In this document: one piece after another, positions 21,533 through 27,298 of the stretch
Layout of the letters: the number at the start of each line of letters is the position of its first letter
How positions within the stretch are numbered: position 1 is the stretch's first letter
Origin: Methanobacteriota archaeon
Lineage (GTDB): Archaea > Thermoplasmatota > Thermoplasmata > RBG-16-68-12 > SOIM01
Assembly: GCA_020345725.1 (NCBI GenBank)
Contig: CP070767.1
Span: 1,359,107-1,396,935 of the forward strand
Length of the DNA stretch: 37,829 bases
Reading direction: 5' to 3'
Translations under genes and position numbers: made by a program
Notes under the pieces: generated by a model
Told to the model about the DNA's origin: nothing
Seen by the model: the letters and a program-made list of their open reading frames with translations, nothing else
Databases searched by the model: none

Positions 21533-21599
21533 GCTTACTCCAATTTCCTGATGGAACTCTTAAATATCAGAAACCGCAATTTCTTGCCTGGAGGTTGGT
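21533..21599 (+). promoter_or_regulatory. Promoter and ribosome binding site of the ubiquitin-like operon (copy A of a duplicated control region)
   Basis: It contains an upstream box GCTTACTCCAATTTCCTG (21533-21550), TATA box TTAAATAT (21560-21567) and ribosome site GGAGGT (21590-21595) 7 bases ahead of the TTG start at 21603. The region aligns without gaps to 25131-25197 with 48 of 67 identical positions by hand count. The upstream box sits where archaeal activators usually bind, just outside the BRE/TATA. A shared regulator is likely, but its identity is not shown by sequence. Confidence 0.7.
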
Positions 21600-21602
21600 A
21601 CT

Positions 21603-21842
21603 TTGCCTTTGAAGAGGATTACCGCTAAGGTTGTTGGCACGCACAAAAGCAAGGTGTACACAATCGATATTGAGGGGGGAACGACGCCCAAGGACATCAA
21701 GAAGCAGATGAACGTACCCAAGTCTTATCGGACCTTTAGGAGGAAGACGAGGGAATTCCTTTCTGACGCGGATGATCTGGGCTCAATCCTCGAAACAGGA
21801 GAGAGTATCGAGTTCTCCCCCGAGGCCAAGTTCGGAAGATAG
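21603..21842 (+). CDS. Ubiquitin-like modifier protein (beta-grasp)
   Basis: A 79-residue protein starting with TTG, supported by GGAGGT 7 bases upstream. The pattern fits a ubiquitin-like beta-grasp: two N-terminal strands (KRITAKVVG and KVYTIDIEG), a helix (TPKDIKKQM), and late strands ending in GESIEFSPEAKFGR, which matches the placing of the last strand and tail of ubiquitin. The tail is Gly78-Arg79, not Gly-Gly, so removal of one Arg by the operon's JAB protease would expose a C-terminal glycine ready for activation. Sequence alone would be weak evidence; the E2-like, JAB and E1 genes that follow make the assignment strong. First gene of the operon; the next start is 3 bases after its stop. 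Confidence 0.78.
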   Translation: MPLKRITAKVVGTHKSKVYTIDIEGGTTPKDIKKQMNVPKSYRTFRRKTREFLSDADDLGSILETGESIEFSPEAKFGR

Positions 21843-21844
21843 GA

Positions 21845-22330
21845 TTGAGGAGGATGACCTTTCGGAGAAGAATAACCTCACTATTCACTTCATTTCGAAG
21901 ACGGAAGAAGGTCAGGATAAGGCATGTTGTCGAGATTCATGAAGCGCCGGTAAAGGTCAAGCCATTACCTGCTCGCAAGAGACTTCTGAAGACGGTGAAG
22001 GCCTATCCCCGAGTTGTAGGGACACAGTCAATCGATCATGAGAAACATCTGCTGGCTTTGGGCTGGGAGCAGGTCAAGAACGGATTCCGGGGATACCTGG
22101 ACTATAATGGGCGACCCATCAGAGCACTGTTGAAAAGGAGATATGGAAGGGAATATCAGATTTTCCTCTTCAGACCTCCCATGGAGGCGTTTGACGATCA
22201 TGATGAGCAGTGCCTGAACTACAGCGGAAGAGGCTGGTTCTACGTACATATGGAGAAGGGTAAGGAAGGCAATGGCAACCCCATCGCTTTGATCAACTGT
22301 GTGCAGGACAAGCTGAGCAATGACAACTGA
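21845..22330 (+). CDS. E2-like ubiquitin-conjugating protein (predicted)
   Basis: A 161-residue protein. A strongly basic N-terminus (residues 1-30, with RRR and RRRKK clusters) precedes a compact domain from about residue 60. The core segment has H119-x3-C123-L followed by G130-W131-F-Y-V-H, placed after predicted beta strands (YQIFLFRPP). This recalls the E2 active site, where a His lies just before the catalytic Cys and a Trp follows a few residues later. Two cysteines exist; C123 is the better candidate and C152 lies in the last helix. Start TTG 21845 or ATG 21854 are both possible. I assign E2 from these residues plus its position between Ubl and JAB genes; overall similarity to eukaryotic E2s is low. 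Confidence 0.62.
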   Translation: MRRMTFRRRITSLFTSFRRRKKVRIRHVVEIHEAPVKVKPLPARKRLLKTVKAYPRVVGTQSIDHEKHLLALGWEQVKNGFRGYLDYNGRPIRALLKRRYGREYQIFLFRPPMEAFDDHDEQCLNYSGRGWFYVHMEKGKEGNGNPIALINCVQDKLSNDN

Positions 22331-22338
22331 GAGGGATT

Positions 22339-23112
22339 GTGGTATCAGTGAGCCAGAAATCCAAAGAGGGACAATCGCCAAAATATCAGGCAGGCCCAGA
22401 TGGGTTCGTCAAAGGCCTGATAGCTATCTCGGTTGTCGTCGTCATCATGGCAGTTCTGTACATCACATCCTATCAATGGAGTCTCTTCTCGACAGACGTT
22501 CTCGCTATCATGCCATACATTCTGCTTCTGCTGACAATGGTACTTCTAGCTTATGTCATAGTTGAGGCTTTGAGACCTGCGACTCCTCAGCGGAGAGTAC
22601 CTAAGAGGGTAGGTTTTGCTCGCGATGTTCCGACCTACGTCATATCCTCCATGATGCTCGAAGAGTGGCATAGCTATCTGGTAAGCCAGAATGATGGACA
22701 AGTTGGGGAAACCATGTGCTTCGCATGCGGGGTAATTGACCCGAACGCCAACACAATAACGCCCTGCGGTTTGCTTACGCCAAAGATGTCTGAGAGAAGC
22801 TGGAGTGGAGTCGTTGGAGACCCAGAGTCCGTTCACGAGGCCTTGAGCAAGATTGATAGACACCTACCCAACCATGCCCTGGCGCTCACCTGCCACCTTC
22901 ACCCTGGTCACGGACCTAACTCGGTTCTACCATCCATGACAGATAGGAAGACCCACAGGGACATGGAGAAAGGAGGCTACCCCGTCATCGGAGCGATATT
23001 CTCGGAAGATGGCTTCGTGCATTTCTATAGCGGTGACAGCAAATTCAATCTAATGGTAACAGGAGGAGGTGTGGAAGACGTTGGAAACAGGACCTATCGT
23101 ATCCATTCCTAG
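22339..23112 (+). CDS. Membrane-anchored JAB/JAMM-type deubiquitinase-like protease
   Basis: A 257-residue protein with two N-terminal membrane helices (about residues 27-45 and 54-77), a basic linker (RRVPKR), and a C-terminal JAB/MPN domain (about 97-257). Zinc and catalytic residues fit JAMM: E124 in VGETMCFACGVID, H186-L-H188-P-G, and S199-M-T-D202 eleven residues after the second His (the classical gap is eight). The late strand GAIFSEDGFVHFYS is typical of archaeal/prokaryotic JAB domains. Expected role: trimming the C-terminal Arg of the modifier and removing it from targets. With two helices the catalytic domain probably faces the cytoplasm. It starts at GTG 22339 (or 22348), 8 bases after the E2-like gene; its end overlaps the E1 frame. 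Confidence 0.85.
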   Translation: MVSVSQKSKEGQSPKYQAGPDGFVKGLIAISVVVVIMAVLYITSYQWSLFSTDVLAIMPYILLLLTMVLLAYVIVEALRPATPQRRVPKRVGFARDVPTYVISSMMLEEWHSYLVSQNDGQVGETMCFACGVIDPNANTITPCGLLTPKMSERSWSGVVGDPESVHEALSKIDRHLPNHALALTCHLHPGHGPNSVLPSMTDRKTHRDMEKGGYPVIGAIFSEDGFVHFYSGDSKFNLMVTGGGVEDVGNRTYRIHS

Positions 23113-23938
23113 AGTGCGCTTCACAAGCAAGGAACTTAAATCCGAAACAGAGGGCGAGAAGGGCGTTTTTGACAGGCAGATTAGAATCCCTGGATGGGAC
23201 CAAAAGAAGGTGGAGAAGGCGAGGATCGCTTGCATAGGCGCTGGCGGTCTGGGTGGTCACGCACTTCAGAATTTGGCGAGAACTGGTGTGAAATCAATCA
23301 AGGTCTGTGACGCTGACCATGTGGAGCTTAGCAACCTGAACAGGCAGTTCTTCTACCACGAACAACTGTACAAGAACAAGGCGTTGAGCTTGGCGGAGAA
23401 TCTGGCGAAAGAGTGTACCGGGGAGACAACCATCGAAGGTTTCTCAATGGACTTCCAGGACGTGGTTCAAGAGTTCCCAGAAGCCTTTGAGGATTCCGAT
23501 TTGCTGTTGTGTCTGGTTGACAACGAGGAGTCAAGGTACGATGCCTCCCGATGGGGTTTCCTGCATGGCATCCCAGTTGTGTTCGCGGCCGTCTCAGACA
23601 GCGCAATGAACGGGTACGTGTTCTTGCAGGATAACGAATCTGGATGCTATTCCTGTCTATGGCACTCTGAGAAGGACCAAGATGACTCGGAGAAGAGGCA
23701 TTGCGTTGCACCCAGTGTCATTTACGTTCACTCAATAATCATCGGTTTGGTAGTCTATCAAGCCCTGTCAGTCATCATGGATTGGCGGGAAGCATGGAGA
23801 TACTACGAGTTCTTCCTTGACGGAAGCACCAGAGCTTTTACGCCCGGGAAGGTGTCGGAATGCCCGGTTTGCGGAACTCCAACAACCGCTGCCAAACCTA
23901 TCATCAAGGTGGAGGCCCCAGGTGAAAAGGAACCATGA
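23069..23938 (+). CDS. E1-like (ThiF/MoeB/HesA family) ubiquitin-like-protein activating enzyme
   Basis: A 289-residue adenylating enzyme. It has the nucleotide loop G57-A-G-G-L-G62 with preceding RIACIGA, the D83-x2-E86-x-S-N-L-N-R92-Q block, catalytic Asp in CLVDNEESR (D151), a zinc site from C193-x2-C196 and C265-x2-C268, and C212 in KRHCVAPSVIYVH, aligned with the thioester-forming cysteine of MoeB/Uba4-type E1s. It should adenylate the modifier's C-terminal glycine and pass it as a thioester to the E2-like protein. Start uncertain: GTG 23069 lies only 2 bases after AGGAGG and overlaps the JAB gene; GTG 23114 is an alternative. No ThiS/MoaD partner or thiamine/molybdopterin genes are near. 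Confidence 0.9.
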   Translation: MWKTLETGPIVSIPRVRFTSKELKSETEGEKGVFDRQIRIPGWDQKKVEKARIACIGAGGLGGHALQNLARTGVKSIKVCDADHVELSNLNRQFFYHEQLYKNKALSLAENLAKECTGETTIEGFSMDFQDVVQEFPEAFEDSDLLLCLVDNEESRYDASRWGFLHGIPVVFAAVSDSAMNGYVFLQDNESGCYSCLWHSEKDQDDSEKRHCVAPSVIYVHSIIIGLVVYQALSVIMDWREAWRYYEFFLDGSTRAFTPGKVSECPVCGTPTTAAKPIIKVEAPGEKEP

Positions 23939-23954
23939 AACCCTTGGACCCAGA

Positions 23955-24695
23955 ATGTCGAATCTGACAAGAGATGAGAAAGGATGCCTCATCATCTGGC
24001 TAACCAAGGTCATGCCACCTCATTCCTTGAAGATTTTTGAGGCTTTCATATCGATTGAAGAACCCTACTTGGGGAATAGGAAGATCGTGAGATCCAGAGT
24101 ACCAACAGGAGAGCAAAACAGATTCGATATGGGGGAGATGACCTATACTGAGATTAAGAAGACCATACCTGGCATTTCGGACGGGTCCCTTCGCGAGGGT
24201 TTGAGATTTCTGGAGCAGAAGGGTTTTCTCATACATGAGAGGAAGCTGTACAGGATTTCCGACGATCCTAATCTGCATGCAGCTCTGCGCAATATAGCCC
24301 AGCTGGCAACCAAGCTCTACGGAATCGAAGACGAAGAGTTTCCCACGATTGAGTTCTATCCAATCATTATCGAGGATGAAGTTGTCAGACTCACCACCAA
24401 GTATGTTTCTCTTGAAAGGGGATTGGCACAATACAGTGCAACACTTGCCAGGGGCAACACCGTCATTGGGCGGATTTGGAACCTATCCAAGGAGCAGGAG
24501 GACTCTGGAAAGCTCGGCTTCAGTGATGATGACAATAGTCGCACATTGAGTGCAAGAGACACCTTCTTCTCACTTGCTTTGGATCCAGGACCCTATAGAC
24601 TGGACATCATTTTCAAAGGTGATGAGATAGCCTCGGTCGAATGGAGTCTGGATCAAGAAGGTCTGAAGAACGAACCAGAAGAGATAGAGGATTAG
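23955..24695 (+). CDS. Winged-helix protein of unknown function, last gene of the ubiquitin-like operon
   Basis: A 246-residue protein beginning at ATG 23955, 17 bases after the E1 stop; a longer upstream frame overlaps E1 and is rejected. Residues about 5-115 form a helix-rich winged-helix unit (MTYTEIKKTIPGISDGSLREGLRFLEQKGF, read in two parts) with strong similarity to the convergent 127-residue protein. Residues about 125-235 form a separate, mostly beta region (SLALDPGPYRLDIIFKGDE) followed by an acidic tail. It could be a regulator of the operon, a substrate adaptor or a target. No known family was recognised. Its stop overlaps the stop of the convergent gene. Confidence 0.75.
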   Translation: MSNLTRDEKGCLIIWLTKVMPPHSLKIFEAFISIEEPYLGNRKIVRSRVPTGEQNRFDMGEMTYTEIKKTIPGISDGSLREGLRFLEQKGFLIHERKLYRISDDPNLHAALRNIAQLATKLYGIEDEEFPTIEFYPIIIEDEVVRLTTKYVSLERGLAQYSATLARGNTVIGRIWNLSKEQEDSGKLGFSDDDNSRTLSARDTFFSLALDPGPYRLDIIFKGDEIASVEWSLDQEGLKNEPEEIED

Positions 24696-25075
24696 TCTGA
24701 TTTCATTTCTTTCTGCCAGTGGCTCTCTGCAAAAGATGCCAACCTTTGTATAAGCTCTTCAAAAAGCGGGTCATCGTTGAGCTTGAATGTCTCCTCTCCT
24801 TCTGCTCCTTCCTTCGTAACCACAAAACCCGTTTCGATGAGACTTCGCAGACCGATTGCTATGTCGGCAGAGCTCATTCCAGTTATCTGTTCTATCTCCT
24901 CGAAGGACATCAACCTAGCCGAGGGCTTTCCCTTGCTTTCGGCCGCCAATGATTTCTCGTCCAAGAATACTTTCAGGACTTTCACCATCGCTGAGTTCTC
25001 ATCGCTCAGTCCCTGCAACCAGCGGTAGAGAAGACCCTTTGCCTGCGGTTCCATCTCATCGATTTTGCTCGGCAT
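24692..25075 (-). CDS. Small winged-helix protein, paralog of the operon's last gene
   Basis: A 127-residue protein aligned over most of its length with the N-terminal half of the 246-residue gene it converges on: shared opening (KGLLYRWLQ against KGCLIIWLT), MSFEEIEQITGMSSADIAIGLR against MTYTEIKKTIPGISDGSLREGLR (each read in parts), and a wing with a DDP[LN] turn. It lacks the beta-rich C-terminal region. It is likely a DNA-binding regulator. A TATA-like CCATTAATAGG lies about 30 bases before ATG 25075. Its promoter lies back to back with copy B of the duplicated control region, which places it as a candidate regulator of that region. Confidence 0.75.
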   Translation of the reverse strand: MPSKIDEMEPQAKGLLYRWLQGLSDENSAMVKVLKVFLDEKSLAAESKGKPSARLMSFEEIEQITGMSSADIAIGLRSLIETGFVVTKEGAEGEETFKLNDDPLFEELIQRLASFAESHWQKEMKSD

Positions 25076-25130
25076 CGCAATGAAGAAAATGCGTTCTTCT
25101 CCTATTAATGGCTTGCTACAAGGTGTTTGG

Positions 25131-25197
25131 GCTTACTCCAAATTCCTGGTGTAATCGTTTAATAGCGGATTTGGCAATCCTGAGCCAGGAGGTTGGT
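25131..25197 (+). promoter_or_regulatory. Copy B of the duplicated control region
   Basis: It contains GCTTACTCCAAATTCCTG (25131-25148), TATA TTTAATAG (25158-25165) and GGAGGT (25188-25193), all at the same spacing as copy A ahead of the ubiquitin-like gene; the distance from the upstream box to the ribosome site is 57 bases in both. The similarity continues into the first codons (CCTTT) after a one-base shift. It drives a short ORF and the beta-propeller gene. Confidence 0.7.
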
Positions 25198-25199
25198 GT

Positions 25200-25262
25200 G
25201 TGCCTTTTCGCAACTTACGGCCTCGTTTGAGTGAGGGAGAGAATAGGAGGGGAGAAGATTGA
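25200..25262 (+). CDS. Short leader ORF (20 codons) upstream of the propeller gene
   Basis: GTG at 25200 follows GGAGGT by 6 bases and opens a 20-codon frame (MPFRNLRPRLSEGENRRGED) ending with TGA at 25260, which overlaps the TTG start of the next gene. Its first residues (MPF-R) echo the start of the ubiquitin-like protein (MPL-K), as expected if the duplicated region included the start codon. It may be a translated leader that couples to the downstream gene, or a remnant of a lost gene copy. Not established as a protein. Confidence 0.4.
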   Translation: MPFRNLRPRLSEGENRRGED

Positions 25263-27298
25263 GGAAAGAGACTGCCGGAACTATGATTGGGAACCTTTCA
25301 AAGATTGTGGTATCACTCAATATCGTCCTGTCACTTTCAGTGATGGCTGTGCCACAGATTCTGGATTCTGAACCAGCTCTAGCGGGCGATTGGAGAATCG
25401 AGATTGTAGATTCTCCTGGTAATGTCGGCATGTATCCTTATTTGGCTCTCGACAGCAACGACCATCCACATATCAGCTATCACGACCATACCAATGAGGA
25501 CCTCAAGTATGCAAGATGGGACGGAAGCTCATGGAATCTTGAGGCCGTCGACACGGAAGGGGAAACTGGCCAGCGTACATCTATAGACATCGATGGGAAT
25601 GACCACCCTCATATTGCCTATCATGATGAGGATGATGGAGATCTCAAATACGCCAAGTGGACGGGAACCAACTGGAGCATCGAGATTGTGGATTCCAATG
25701 GTACTACTGGCTTTGACAAAACGATAGTCCTCGACAGCAACGAACATCCCCACATAGCATATCACGATTATATTAATGCAGACCTCAAATACGCCAAGTG
25801 GACGGGAACCAACTGGAGCATCGAGACGGTCGATTCCGAGGGCAGGGTCGGCGAATGGTCTTCAATGGCTCTTGACAGCAACGACTATCCTCACATAAGT
25901 TACGACGCTCGCCACAAATTCAGCTATGCAAGATGGACGGGTAGCAGCTGGAACATTGAGACAGTTGACTTGAATGCCGTCTGGACTTCCATAGCCCTTG
26001 ACAGCAATGACTTCCCACATGTAAGCTACTTCGACTCTCTCAATATCAGCCTCAAGTATGCGAAATGGACGGGAAGCGGGTGGAATATCGAGACTGTGGA
26101 CAGCTCAGGTCAGAGCGTTGGCTGGTGGTCTTCAATTGCTCTTGATAGTCACGATTGTCCGCGCATAGCATATTATACTGAAGTACCCCACCTCCTCAGA
26201 TATGCAAAATGGACAGGAAGTAACTGGACATTCGAGATAGTGGATGATGAGTATGAAGCGAGTTGGTGGCCATCCCTGGCACTTGACAATAATAACAATC
26301 CTCATATAGCCTATCTTCACGCCGGTATTGCGTGGGATTTGAGATATGCTACGAAGACTGTTGTGATCGAAAACATGCCTCCAGTTGCCATTGCCGAGAT
26401 TGACGAGGAAGGAGAAGAAGGATCACCAACTAGGTTCAATGGAAGTGGGTCATACGATCCTGAAGGTGGCATTCTTGCGTACTCGTGGGATTTCGATGCT
26501 TCGGTGGATAGTGATGGAGATGGGAACTACACAAATGATATGGATGCGACTGGAGCAACTCCCACCCACATATATAGCGACAACGCCACTTACACCATAA
26601 CTCTAAGGGTAATCGACGACACAGGACAATGGGATATCGACACTTGTGTTGCAACGGTGCTCAATGTCCCACCAACTGTGGAACTAAGAGTTCTGCCAAT
26701 ACAAGCGAACGTGTCTCTGAGAATAGCAGGAGAGAAATGGCATGATGTCTCAGTGGAATTGTATGAGGATGACATACTCGTGGCGGAAGGAACTCTCACT
26801 CGATATCCTGGAAGCCCGAATGATCAAACGCTCGATCTCACGCAACTTCTGGTGGGAATCTCAAATGGATACTCAGCATTCATCCGCTATACTCCTGAAG
26901 ACGATCCTGTCAACGGTCAACCAAACGGAGCCAATCCATGCTGGATAATTATGAGATTCACTGACCAAGAAGAGGTCCGTTTGCACCATACATTCAACGT
27001 TCAACATCCAGAAACATACGTCTGGGAAGTTGACCTGACGCTGGCAATTCTTCCTAACTCTCTGACTTTTGAGGGCGTAGTATTTGACCCTGGAGCTGAT
27101 CACCTCTTGTTTCATTGGGACTTCGGGGATGGAACAGGCTTCCACAAGTTCCATCGAAACAACGGGACCTTTCCAGTGCATATCGAGGAGACAAGATCTC
27201 ACTTATATCCAGGAAGCGGGACATACATTGTGACGCTTACCGTCGAGGACGATGATGGTGGATCTGGACATGACACAATCAGCATAGTGATCCCATAG
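25259..27298 (+). CDS. Secreted seven-bladed beta-propeller protein with PKD domains
   Basis: A 679-residue exported protein. TTG 25259 has GGAGG 7 bases ahead; ATG 25283 is an alternative and would give a tidier signal peptide (about residues 9-45). Seven repeats of about 47 residues follow (residues 46-375). Each has a W-x-I/L-E-x-V-D strand, an L-D-x-N-x-x-P-H-I-[SA]-Y strand and an L-[KR]-Y-A-[KR]-W strand, enough for one closed propeller. A PKD domain (about 380-470, ending in YSDNATYTITLRVID), a mixed region, and a second PKD-like domain (about 590-679, with WDFGDGTG) complete it. There is no C-terminal anchor. It shares its promoter type with the ubiquitin-like operon. Function unknown; probably surface or extracellular binding. 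Confidence 0.85.
   Translation: MRKETAGTMIGNLSKIVVSLNIVLSLSVMAVPQILDSEPALAGDWRIEIVDSPGNVGMYPYLALDSNDHPHISYHDHTNEDLKYARWDGSSWNLEAVDTEGETGQRTSIDIDGNDHPHIAYHDEDDGDLKYAKWTGTNWSIEIVDSNGTTGFDKTIVLDSNEHPHIAYHDYINADLKYAKWTGTNWSIETVDSEGRVGEWSSMALDSNDYPHISYDARHKFSYARWTGSSWNIETVDLNAVWTSIALDSNDFPHVSYFDSLNISLKYAKWTGSGWNIETVDSSGQSVGWWSSIALDSHDCPRIAYYTEVPHLLRYAKWTGSNWTFEIVDDEYEASWWPSLALDNNNNPHIAYLHAGIAWDLRYATKTVVIENMPPVAIAEIDEEGEEGSPTRFNGSGSYDPEGGILAYSWDFDASVDSDGDGNYTNDMDATGATPTHIYSDNATYTITLRVIDDTGQWDIDTCVATVLNVPPTVELRVLPIQANVSLRIAGEKWHDVSVELYEDDILVAEGTLTRYPGSPNDQTLDLTQLLVGISNGYSAFIRYTPEDDPVNGQPNGANPCWIIMRFTDQEEVRLHHTFNVQHPETYVWEVDLTLAILPNSLTFEGVVFDPGADHLLFHWDFGDGTGFHKFHRNNGTFPVHIEETRSHLYPGSGTYIVTLTVEDDDGGSGHDTISIVIP

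What the first reader, a model, noticed from the sequence alone, without database searches (positions are those of the whole stretch)
21603..24695. Archaeal ubiquitin-like conjugation operon in the order Ubl, E2-like, JAB protease, E1, winged-helix
Four consecutive tightly spaced genes encode a beta-grasp modifier, a protein with an E2-like His/Cys/Trp core, a JAMM protease and an E1/ThiF enzyme with a thioester-type cysteine. The order matches bacterial ISG15-like (Bil, A-B-C-D) antiviral operons. Known archaeal systems are either SAMP-type without an E2 or Caldiarchaeum/Asgard systems with a RING E3. A compact four-part set in a Thermoplasmatota-like genome, with an extra winged-helix gene, looks like a distinct lineage. 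Whether it defends against viruses or does housekeeping modification is unknown.
Basis: partly seen in the sequence, partly recalled or inferred. Interest (0 to 1): 0.92.

Follow-up and report, generated by a model that had tools for sequence, protein, structure and literature searches.

The report
Archaeal ubiquitin-like protein-tagging operon
A rare, patchily distributed gene cluster in an archaeon appears to encode a compact ubiquitin-like tagging system (tag, activating enzyme, probable E2-type carrier, membrane-bound tag-removing protease and its own switches); it resembles bacterial antiviral tagging operons but is not the same as any of them, and its job in the cell is not yet known.

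Summary
Window 21603-24695 carries five overlapping or abutting genes: a ubiquitin-like protein, a small protein with an invariant C/W/H core, a JAMM protease, a ThiF-type E1 and a winged-helix protein. The host is archaeal by 16S. The same operon is in two of four family relatives. Two other families of the class carry three divergent loci in which Ubl and E2-like protein are fused in one ORF, followed by JAMM and E1. Only 5 of 400 class genomes have it. The Ubl fold is firm (Foldseek top hit Caldiarchaeum ubiquitin); E1 and JAMM active sites are intact; the E2 assignment is probable but unproven (AF2/Foldseek inconclusive). Gene order matches Bil, but membership fails: single not tandem Ubl, E1 without inactive adenylation or Cys domain, no CEHH motif. 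New: a convergent winged-helix gene that co-occurs with the operon; a promoter element found only at the operon and one secreted-protein gene in two genera; a two-helix membrane anchor fused to JAMM here, separate genes elsewhere; in one relative, two operons running on into HerA-type ATPases. Most likely a JAMM-matured Ubl conjugation system, possibly defensive. New variant of a known kind.

The parts
21533..21599 (+). promoter region with a shared element (TTACTCCAATTTCCTGATGGAA) just upstream of a TATA-like TTAAATAT, ahead of the Ubl gene
   Evidence: 72% identical over 67 nt to 25131-25197; 22-nt core found at only two places in G000 and two in G033; core conserved before the Ubl gene in G033 and G035; 2 in window against 0.01 expected
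21603..21842 (+). ubiquitin-like modifier, 79 aa, TTG start, ends ...KFGR; glycine 78 (21834-21836) is the conserved tail glycine
   Evidence: beta-grasp order and pLDDT about 90 in the model of the G047 relative; Foldseek to ubiquitins, prob 1.00
21845..22330 (+). E2-like protein, 161 aa (ATG 21854 is the start that matches relatives); C123 = 22211-22213, W131, H135
   Evidence: hhalign puts PP-C123-W131 on PP-C85-W93 of UBE2D2; fold search inconclusive
22339..23112 (+). JAMM/JAB metalloprotease, 257 aa, with two predicted transmembrane helices (residues 24-42 and 57-75) before the catalytic domain; H186-x-H188-x10-S199-x2-D202 at 22894-22944
   Evidence: Prok-JAB weakly matched by 3 of 6 family members (best E 0.0093)
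23069..23938 (+). ThiF/MoeB-type E1, 289 aa (TTG 23081 is the start that matches relatives); C212 = 23702-23704; no rhodanese domain, no added Cys domain
   Evidence: Pfam ThiF 5.5e-39; alignment to MoeB, ThiF, UBA5; invariant residues
23922..24695 (+). winged-helix protein, 257 aa from GTG 23922, with a C-terminal region of unknown fold; last gene of the operon in this family
   Evidence: weak HxlR match (E 0.002); orthologues in G033 and G035; dN/dS 0.11
24692..25075 (-). convergent 127-aa winged-helix protein, distantly alike to the operon's own winged-helix protein
   Evidence: present only in the three family genomes that carry the operon; similarity E 5e-06
25131..25197 (+). second copy of the promoter element, ahead of the secreted-protein gene
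25259..27298 (+). secreted repeat/PKD-domain protein, 679 aa; proposed co-regulated partner
   Evidence: PKD domains; 69% identical orthologue in G033 with the same element upstream, about 3.3 kb before the operon

Best explanation
An accessory, patchily inherited ubiquitin-like conjugation and deconjugation system. Proposed cycle: the membrane-anchored JAMM protease trims the Ubl precursor behind its conserved tail glycine (one residue, R or A, in this family; the whole E2 domain in the relatives with a fused Ubl-E2 ORF); the E1 adenylates the glycine and takes it as a thioester on C212; the E2-like protein takes it over on C123, with H135 near the active site; it is then linked to a target and later removed by the JAMM. 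The two winged-helix proteins probably control the operon and one secreted-protein gene through the shared promoter element. Shown: genes, conservation, Ubl fold of a relative, intact E1 and JAMM motifs, co-inheritance, shared element. Inferred: every chemical step, the E2 function, the targets, the regulators' sites. Role: an inducible response to viruses or mobile elements is the likeliest single role (about 0.45).
For: Ubl: predicted ubiquitin fold, top Foldseek hit Caldiarchaeum ubiquitin. Tail glycine kept in all Ubls that lie in complete operons, followed by 1 residue, by QAQ in a stray G058 copy, or by a linker and the E2 domain: the pattern expected of a processed precursor. E1: ThiF family, 5.5e-39, with invariant ATP-site residues and C212 at the E. 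coli ThiF/MoeB cysteine position (position from general knowledge). JAMM: invariant E, HxH, S, D. E2-like: invariant C, W at +8 as in eukaryotic E2s, H at +12; hhalign places PP, C and W on the UBE2D2 active-site stretch, 7 of 400 column shuffles match both score and register. Fusion of Ubl to the E2-like domain in three loci ties the two functionally. Patchy: 3 of 5 family genomes, 5 of 400 class genomes. Defence hints: in G047 two divergent copies run on into two small membrane-protein genes and a HerA-type ATPase, one beside a DNA methylase, HEF_HK and Response_reg_2 genes; G058's copy lies beside an integrase; G035's near HSDR_N.
Against: No Pfam, PADLOC, NCBIfam or PHROG family claims the Ubl, E2-like or JAMM proteins of the window at a firm score. 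AF2 of the E2-like protein is of low confidence (pLDDT 65) and Foldseek found no E2. hhalign score alone is not significant (67 of 400 shuffles reach it). The Ubl ends in GR, not GG. In the window the operon sits among metabolic genes, not a defence island, and the Ubl is the best conserved protein (79% between genera), which fits housekeeping as well as defence.
Confidence: 0.6

Rival explanations
1. Surface or envelope modification system rather than defence: the membrane-bound JAMM and co-regulated secreted PKD protein mean that conjugation acts at the cell envelope, for instance on membrane or export proteins.
For: Two-helix anchor on the JAMM in this family and separate two-helix genes in G047 and G058; shared promoter element only at the operon and the secreted-protein gene in G000 and G033; Ubl strongly conserved.
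Against: Patchy distribution within one family; HerA and restriction-type neighbours in relatives; the secreted-protein family is large and its G035 orthologue was not found next to the operon.
Confidence: 0.25
2. The 161-aa protein is not an E2: it is a Ubl-binding partner or adaptor, and conjugation (if any) runs from E1 directly, as in SAMP systems.
For: No significant sequence or fold match to any E2; region between the PP motif and the cysteine is 9 residues shorter than in UBE2D2.
Against: Invariant C, W(+8), H(+12) in six loci with little else conserved; register with UBE2D2 and with multi-ubiquitin E2/UBC proteins over 63 columns, neither significant by score; fused to Ubl in three loci.
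Confidence: 0.2
3. Sulfur-carrier or tRNA-thiolation system of the SAMP/Urm1/ThiS kind.
For: E1 is nearest to ThiF/MoeB in profile scores, C212 at the ThiF cysteine position.
Against: No rhodanese, thiamine or molybdopterin gene in the operon; extra E2-like and JAMM genes; rare, patchy distribution; the genome has three other ThiF-type genes for such work.
Confidence: 0.08
4. A true archaeal Bil system.
For: Same order Ubl, E2, JAMM, E1.
Against: Single Ubl, E1 without inactive adenylation domain or Cys domain, no CEHH motif.
Confidence: 0.03

Closest known systems
Bil (BilABCD, ISG15-like) bacterial antiphage operons
   Same: Gene order Ubl, E2, JAMM, E1; separate genes; Ubl (there shown, here inferred) trimmed by the JAMM to bare its glycine
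   Different: BilA has two Ubl domains, BilD has inactive and active adenylation domains plus a Cys domain, BilB has the CEHH motif (PMC11354881); here none of these, JAMM is membrane-anchored, winged-helix genes added
Iyer et al. 2006 operon type 6d (Ubl, JAB, E1, E2-like, helical protein)
   Same: Stand-alone Ubl with a conserved glycine at the C-terminus; E2-like protein with Cys and a conserved His C-terminal to it instead of the usual E2 His
   Different: No helical enzyme-like protein; JAB there has an alpha+beta N-terminal domain, here a membrane hairpin; reported only in bacteria (PMC1779556)
Iyer type 6e / multi-ubiquitin operons (multiubiquitin, E2/UBC, ThiF, DUF6527)
   Same: Ubl sometimes fused to the E2-like domain, as in G047 and G058; E2-like proteins align over 63 columns incl. 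the GW..H stretch
   Different: There the E2 lacks the Cys and is called inactive, E1 carries an N-terminal JAB or X domain, Ubl is repeated (PMC1779556)
Caldiarchaeum / Asgard ubiquitin systems
   Same: Archaeal Ubl, E1, E2-type and JAMM genes; predicted Ubl fold closest to Caldiarchaeum ubiquitin
   Different: Those have a RING E3, eukaryote-like E2 and E1 with a Cys domain (PMC5654768, PMC11354881); Heimdall loci fetched here hold a Ubl and an E1 of another kind
SAMP / UbaA of haloarchaea
   Same: Archaeal Ubl and ThiF/MoeB-type E1 without Cys domain; JAMM proteases
   Different: No E2; not in such an operon (general knowledge; PMC11354881)
Type II CBASS (Cap2/Cap3)
   Same: E1, E2 and JAB in a defence operon
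   Different: Cap2 fuses E2 and E1, and the tagged protein is a cyclase; no cyclase here

Membership tests
Bil (BilABCD) | order Ubl, E2, JAMM, E1 in one operon | tested here: met
   (E2 identity probable)
Bil (BilABCD) | BilA with two consecutive Ubl domains | tested here: not met
   79-aa single domain; relatives have single domains too
Bil (BilABCD) | BilD with inactive plus active adenylation domains and a helical Cys domain | tested here: not met
   289 aa, one ThiF domain 35-241
Bil (BilABCD) | BilB CEHH motif (Cys, Glu +6, His +8, His +13) | tested here: not met
   residues at +6 vary, +8 is Trp, His is at +12 in six loci (motif from PMC11354881)
Bil (BilABCD) | antiphage activity | not testable with these tools
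   needs a virus-host experiment
E2/UBC superfamily | UBC fold | tested here: inconclusive
   AF2 pLDDT 65, no E2 among the listed Foldseek matches; element order alpha, strands, Cys, Trp, alpha is compatible
E2/UBC superfamily | catalytic Cys with the C-x7-W signature | tested here: met
   C123 and W131 invariant; register with UBE2D2 C85/W93
E2/UBC superfamily | significant profile match to a known E2 family | tested here: not met
   no Prok-E2 hit at E up to 5 for any of six members; hhalign scores not significant
Ubiquitin-like beta-grasp modifiers | ubiquitin fold | tested here: met
   model of the 43%-identical G047 domain; Foldseek prob 1.00
Ubiquitin-like beta-grasp modifiers | C-terminal glycine free or exposable | tested here: inconclusive
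   conserved Gly at penultimate position or before the E2 domain; exposure by cleavage is not testable here
JAMM/MPN+ metalloproteases | Glu, HxH, Ser, Asp catalytic set | tested here: met
   invariant in six loci, but HxH to Ser spacing is 10, not 7
ThiF/E1 superfamily | Rossmann ATP site plus catalytic Cys | tested here: met
Caldiarchaeum/Asgard ubiquitin system | RING E3 in the cluster | tested here: not met
   no RING or other E3 candidate among 21603-27298
SAMP system | no E2 partner | tested here: inconclusive
   an E2-like gene lies in the operon; its E2 nature is unproven

The most novel reading that the evidence does not exclude
A distinct archaeal class of membrane-linked ubiquitin-like systems in which the ancestral form is a Ubl-E2 precursor cut by its own JAMM to yield tag and carrier in equal amounts, coupled to a membrane hairpin and, in some genomes, to a HerA-type ATPase with a nuclease-like tail, acting as antiviral or anti-plasmid immunity.
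Probability: 0.25. Interest if true: 0.86.

Novelty: new variant of a known kind. Interest (0 to 1): 0.64.

Why it matters
Four-part ubiquitin-like operons with E2-type proteins have been described in bacteria (Iyer 2006; Bil; Bub), and E2-bearing archaeal systems in the Caldiarchaeum/Asgard lineages. If real, this is a third arrangement: an archaeal operon with an E1 as simple as ThiF, a putative E2 and no E3. The fused Ubl-E2 relatives suggest how tag maturation and E2 supply could be coupled, and make it testable with four small proteins. The membrane anchor and HerA coupling hint at a function that, as far as I know, no characterised Ubl system has been shown to have.

Tried and rejected
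Pfam, PADLOC, NCBIfam, PHROGs for the Ubl, E2-like and JAMM proteins: nothing firm. PDB sequence searches with single sequences and profiles of Ubl, E2-like and JAMM: only chance hits. Viral contigs with E2-like and JAMM profiles: no relatives. Plasmids with the E2-like and JAMM proteins: none; with the E1: ThiF, MoeB, Cap2 and multi-ubiquitin E1s and the like, only distantly. The genome-contig scan with the E1 brought only Heimdall E1s of the eukaryote-like system. An att-like direct repeat around the module was considered: the 67-nt repeat is better read as a shared promoter, because it lies before start codons and recurs before the orthologous genes in G033. Finding the empty site in G034/G036 by flanking genes failed; no close orthologue of the flanking genes tested was found there. 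Bil membership was tested and rejected.
Full report
OBSERVATION. Window 21603-24695 holds five same-strand ORFs that abut or overlap: Ubl (79 aa), E2-like (161 aa, or 158 from ATG 21854), JAMM (257 aa), E1 (289 aa, or 285 from TTG 23081) and winged-helix (257 aa from GTG 23922). The alternative starts are those that match the relatives. The genome is one 1.99 Mb contig and its 16S fragment scores best with Rfam's archaeal SSU model.

REALITY OF THE GENES. The same five-gene operon occurs in G033 and G035 of a second genus of the family, and not in G034 or in the congener G036. Between G033 and G035 dN/dS is 0.00 (Ubl), 0.12 (E2-like), 0.10 (JAMM), 0.06 (E1) and 0.11 (winged-helix). Between genera the Ubl is the most conserved protein (79% identity) and the E2-like and JAMM proteins the least (56%).

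DISTANT RELATIVES. A Ubl search of the class found G047 and G058, in two other families. In three loci there (L022, L023, L024) Ubl and E2-like domains form one ORF, followed by JAMM and E1. A profile of Ubl plus E2-like protein found the system in 5 of 400 class genomes and 4 of 390 genomes drawn from the phylum. Nothing turned up in viral contigs or plasmids.

COMPONENTS. Ubl: no sequence hit, but AF2 of the G047 fusion protein gives a beta-grasp domain at pLDDT about 90 and Foldseek returns ubiquitins with probability 1.00, Caldiarchaeum ubiquitin first. The tail glycine is kept: KFGR and KFGA here, LG followed by linker and E2 domain in the fusions, RVGQAQ in stray G058 copies. A second Ubl copy in L022 lacks it. 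E1: ThiF family at 5.5e-39, one domain, invariant ATP-site residues, four zinc-type cysteines, and C212 in the stretch that corresponds to the ThiF/MoeB cysteine (correspondence from general knowledge of ThiF). JAMM: invariant E124, H186, H188, S199, D202, with three extra residues between HxH and S compared with the classical motif; Prok-JAB is hit weakly by three members. Two transmembrane helices precede the catalytic domain in the window and in G033/G035 but not in G047 or G058.

THE E2 QUESTION. Ten positions are invariant across the six loci, among them C123, W131 (+8) and H135 (+12). In eukaryotic E2s the active Cys is also followed at +8 by Trp (UBE2D2, RAD6, UBE2N). hhalign of the core against four eukaryotic E2s (sequences entered from memory) aligned exactly PP, C123 and W131 with PP, C85 and W93 of UBE2D2. 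The score alone is unremarkable (67 of 400 column shuffles reach it); score and register together occurred in 7 of 400. Against 11 E2/UBC proteins of bacterial multi-ubiquitin operons the alignment runs over 63 columns to the last helix, again not significant by score (45 of 300). For scale, those E2-like proteins, an accepted relationship, reach only 19.5 (P 0.02) against the same eukaryotic set. AF2 of the window protein was poor (pLDDT 65) and Foldseek listed no E2. The E2 label is therefore probable, not shown.

MODULE BEYOND THE FINDING. (a) A convergent 127-aa winged-helix gene (24692-25075) is present in exactly the three family genomes with the operon and absent from the two without. 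(b) A 22-nt element upstream of the Ubl TATA-like box occurs at only two places in G000 and two in G033, within two mismatches: before the operon, and before a secreted PKD protein whose two copies are 69% identical over the full length. G035 has it before its operon; one two-mismatch match in G036 is unexplained. (c) In both G047 loci E1 is followed by two small membrane-protein genes and a HerA-type ATPase gene, tightly packed; the two ATPases are only 23% identical and the first membrane proteins 51%, so the order has been kept over much divergence. G058 has a two-helix gene after E1 as well. So a membrane hairpin is a recurrent part, fused to the JAMM in this family. (d) Around the relatives: DNA methylase, HEF_HK and Response_reg_2 genes (L022), integrase (L024), HSDR_N and UDG (L021). 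The HerA C-termini share a D...E-x-E pattern that I read as nuclease-like; no profile confirms this.

MECHANISM. Trimming by JAMM, activation on E1 C212, transfer to E2-like C123, conjugation, removal by JAMM; all steps inferred from families and motifs. The fused precursors suggest that JAMM cleavage behind the glycine frees tag and E2 together; in this family the fusion has been split (or the fusion arose later) and a single residue remains behind the glycine. Patchy inheritance, winged-helix control and the company in relatives favour an inducible defence role (about 0.45); membrane anchor, secreted co-regulated protein and metabolic surroundings keep an envelope role open (about 0.25).

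COMPARISON. Iyer et al. 2006 (PMC1779556) describe five bacterial operon types; type 6d has a stand-alone Ubl with C-terminal glycine and an E2-like protein whose conserved His lies after the Cys, as here; type 6e has Ubl fused to an E2-like domain without Cys. Bil is defined by tandem-Ubl BilA, two-domain BilD with Cys domain and CEHH BilB (PMC11354881); all three fail here. Bub operons are often controlled by linked transcription regulators, including a winged-helix one, and have not been shown to act against phage (PMC13373217). Makarova and Koonin 2010 state that no E2-like proteins had been detected in archaea (PMC2948915); the Caldiarchaeum E1-E2-RING system was reconstructed later (PMC5654768). 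I found no report of this arrangement in the held papers; these are open-access only, so prior description in a subscription paper cannot be excluded.

VERDICT. A real, conserved, rare operon; new variant of the known prokaryotic Ubl-E2-JAB-E1 kind, in an archaeal lineage, with an unproven E2 and unknown targets.

Noticed in passing
L022:7780-7992: A second Ubl-like ORF just before the fused Ubl-E2 gene in G047 ends in SPPFML without the tail glycine and has no ATG start; decayed copy or non-conjugable Ubl.
   Followed up: partly
L032:110-436 and L034:50-370: Two G058 contig ends (C4, C39) each stop just behind an almost identical Ubl gene ending RVGQAQ, as if a repeated element (further operon copies) broke the assembly.
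   Followed up: partly
L024:233-1482: In G058 the JAMM C-terminus and E1 N-terminus are both missing at their junction, as if about 200 bp were deleted; the copy may be defective.
   Followed up: no
L023:8807-9391: 194-aa protein next to the second G047 operon with an RNKIMH stretch that resembles the HEPN RNase motif; no Pfam or PADLOC hit.
   Followed up: partly
L022:112-5224: HEF_HK/HATPase protein and Response_reg_2 protein next to a C5 DNA methylase C-terminus, probably another conflict system.
   Followed up: partly
L056:1501-1522 (G036:C30:181171-181192): One two-mismatch match to the promoter element in the congener that lacks the operon, with no obvious gene behind it.
   Followed up: partly
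L072/L073 (G000:C1:647212-647893): The 16S of the window's genome matches the archaeal model only at positions 4-496 and 528-692; the rest was not found in this search (intron, fragmentation or masking).
   Followed up: no
window 25259-27298: The secreted repeat/PKD protein belongs to a very large family, about 50 matches per genome in this lineage.
   Followed up: partly
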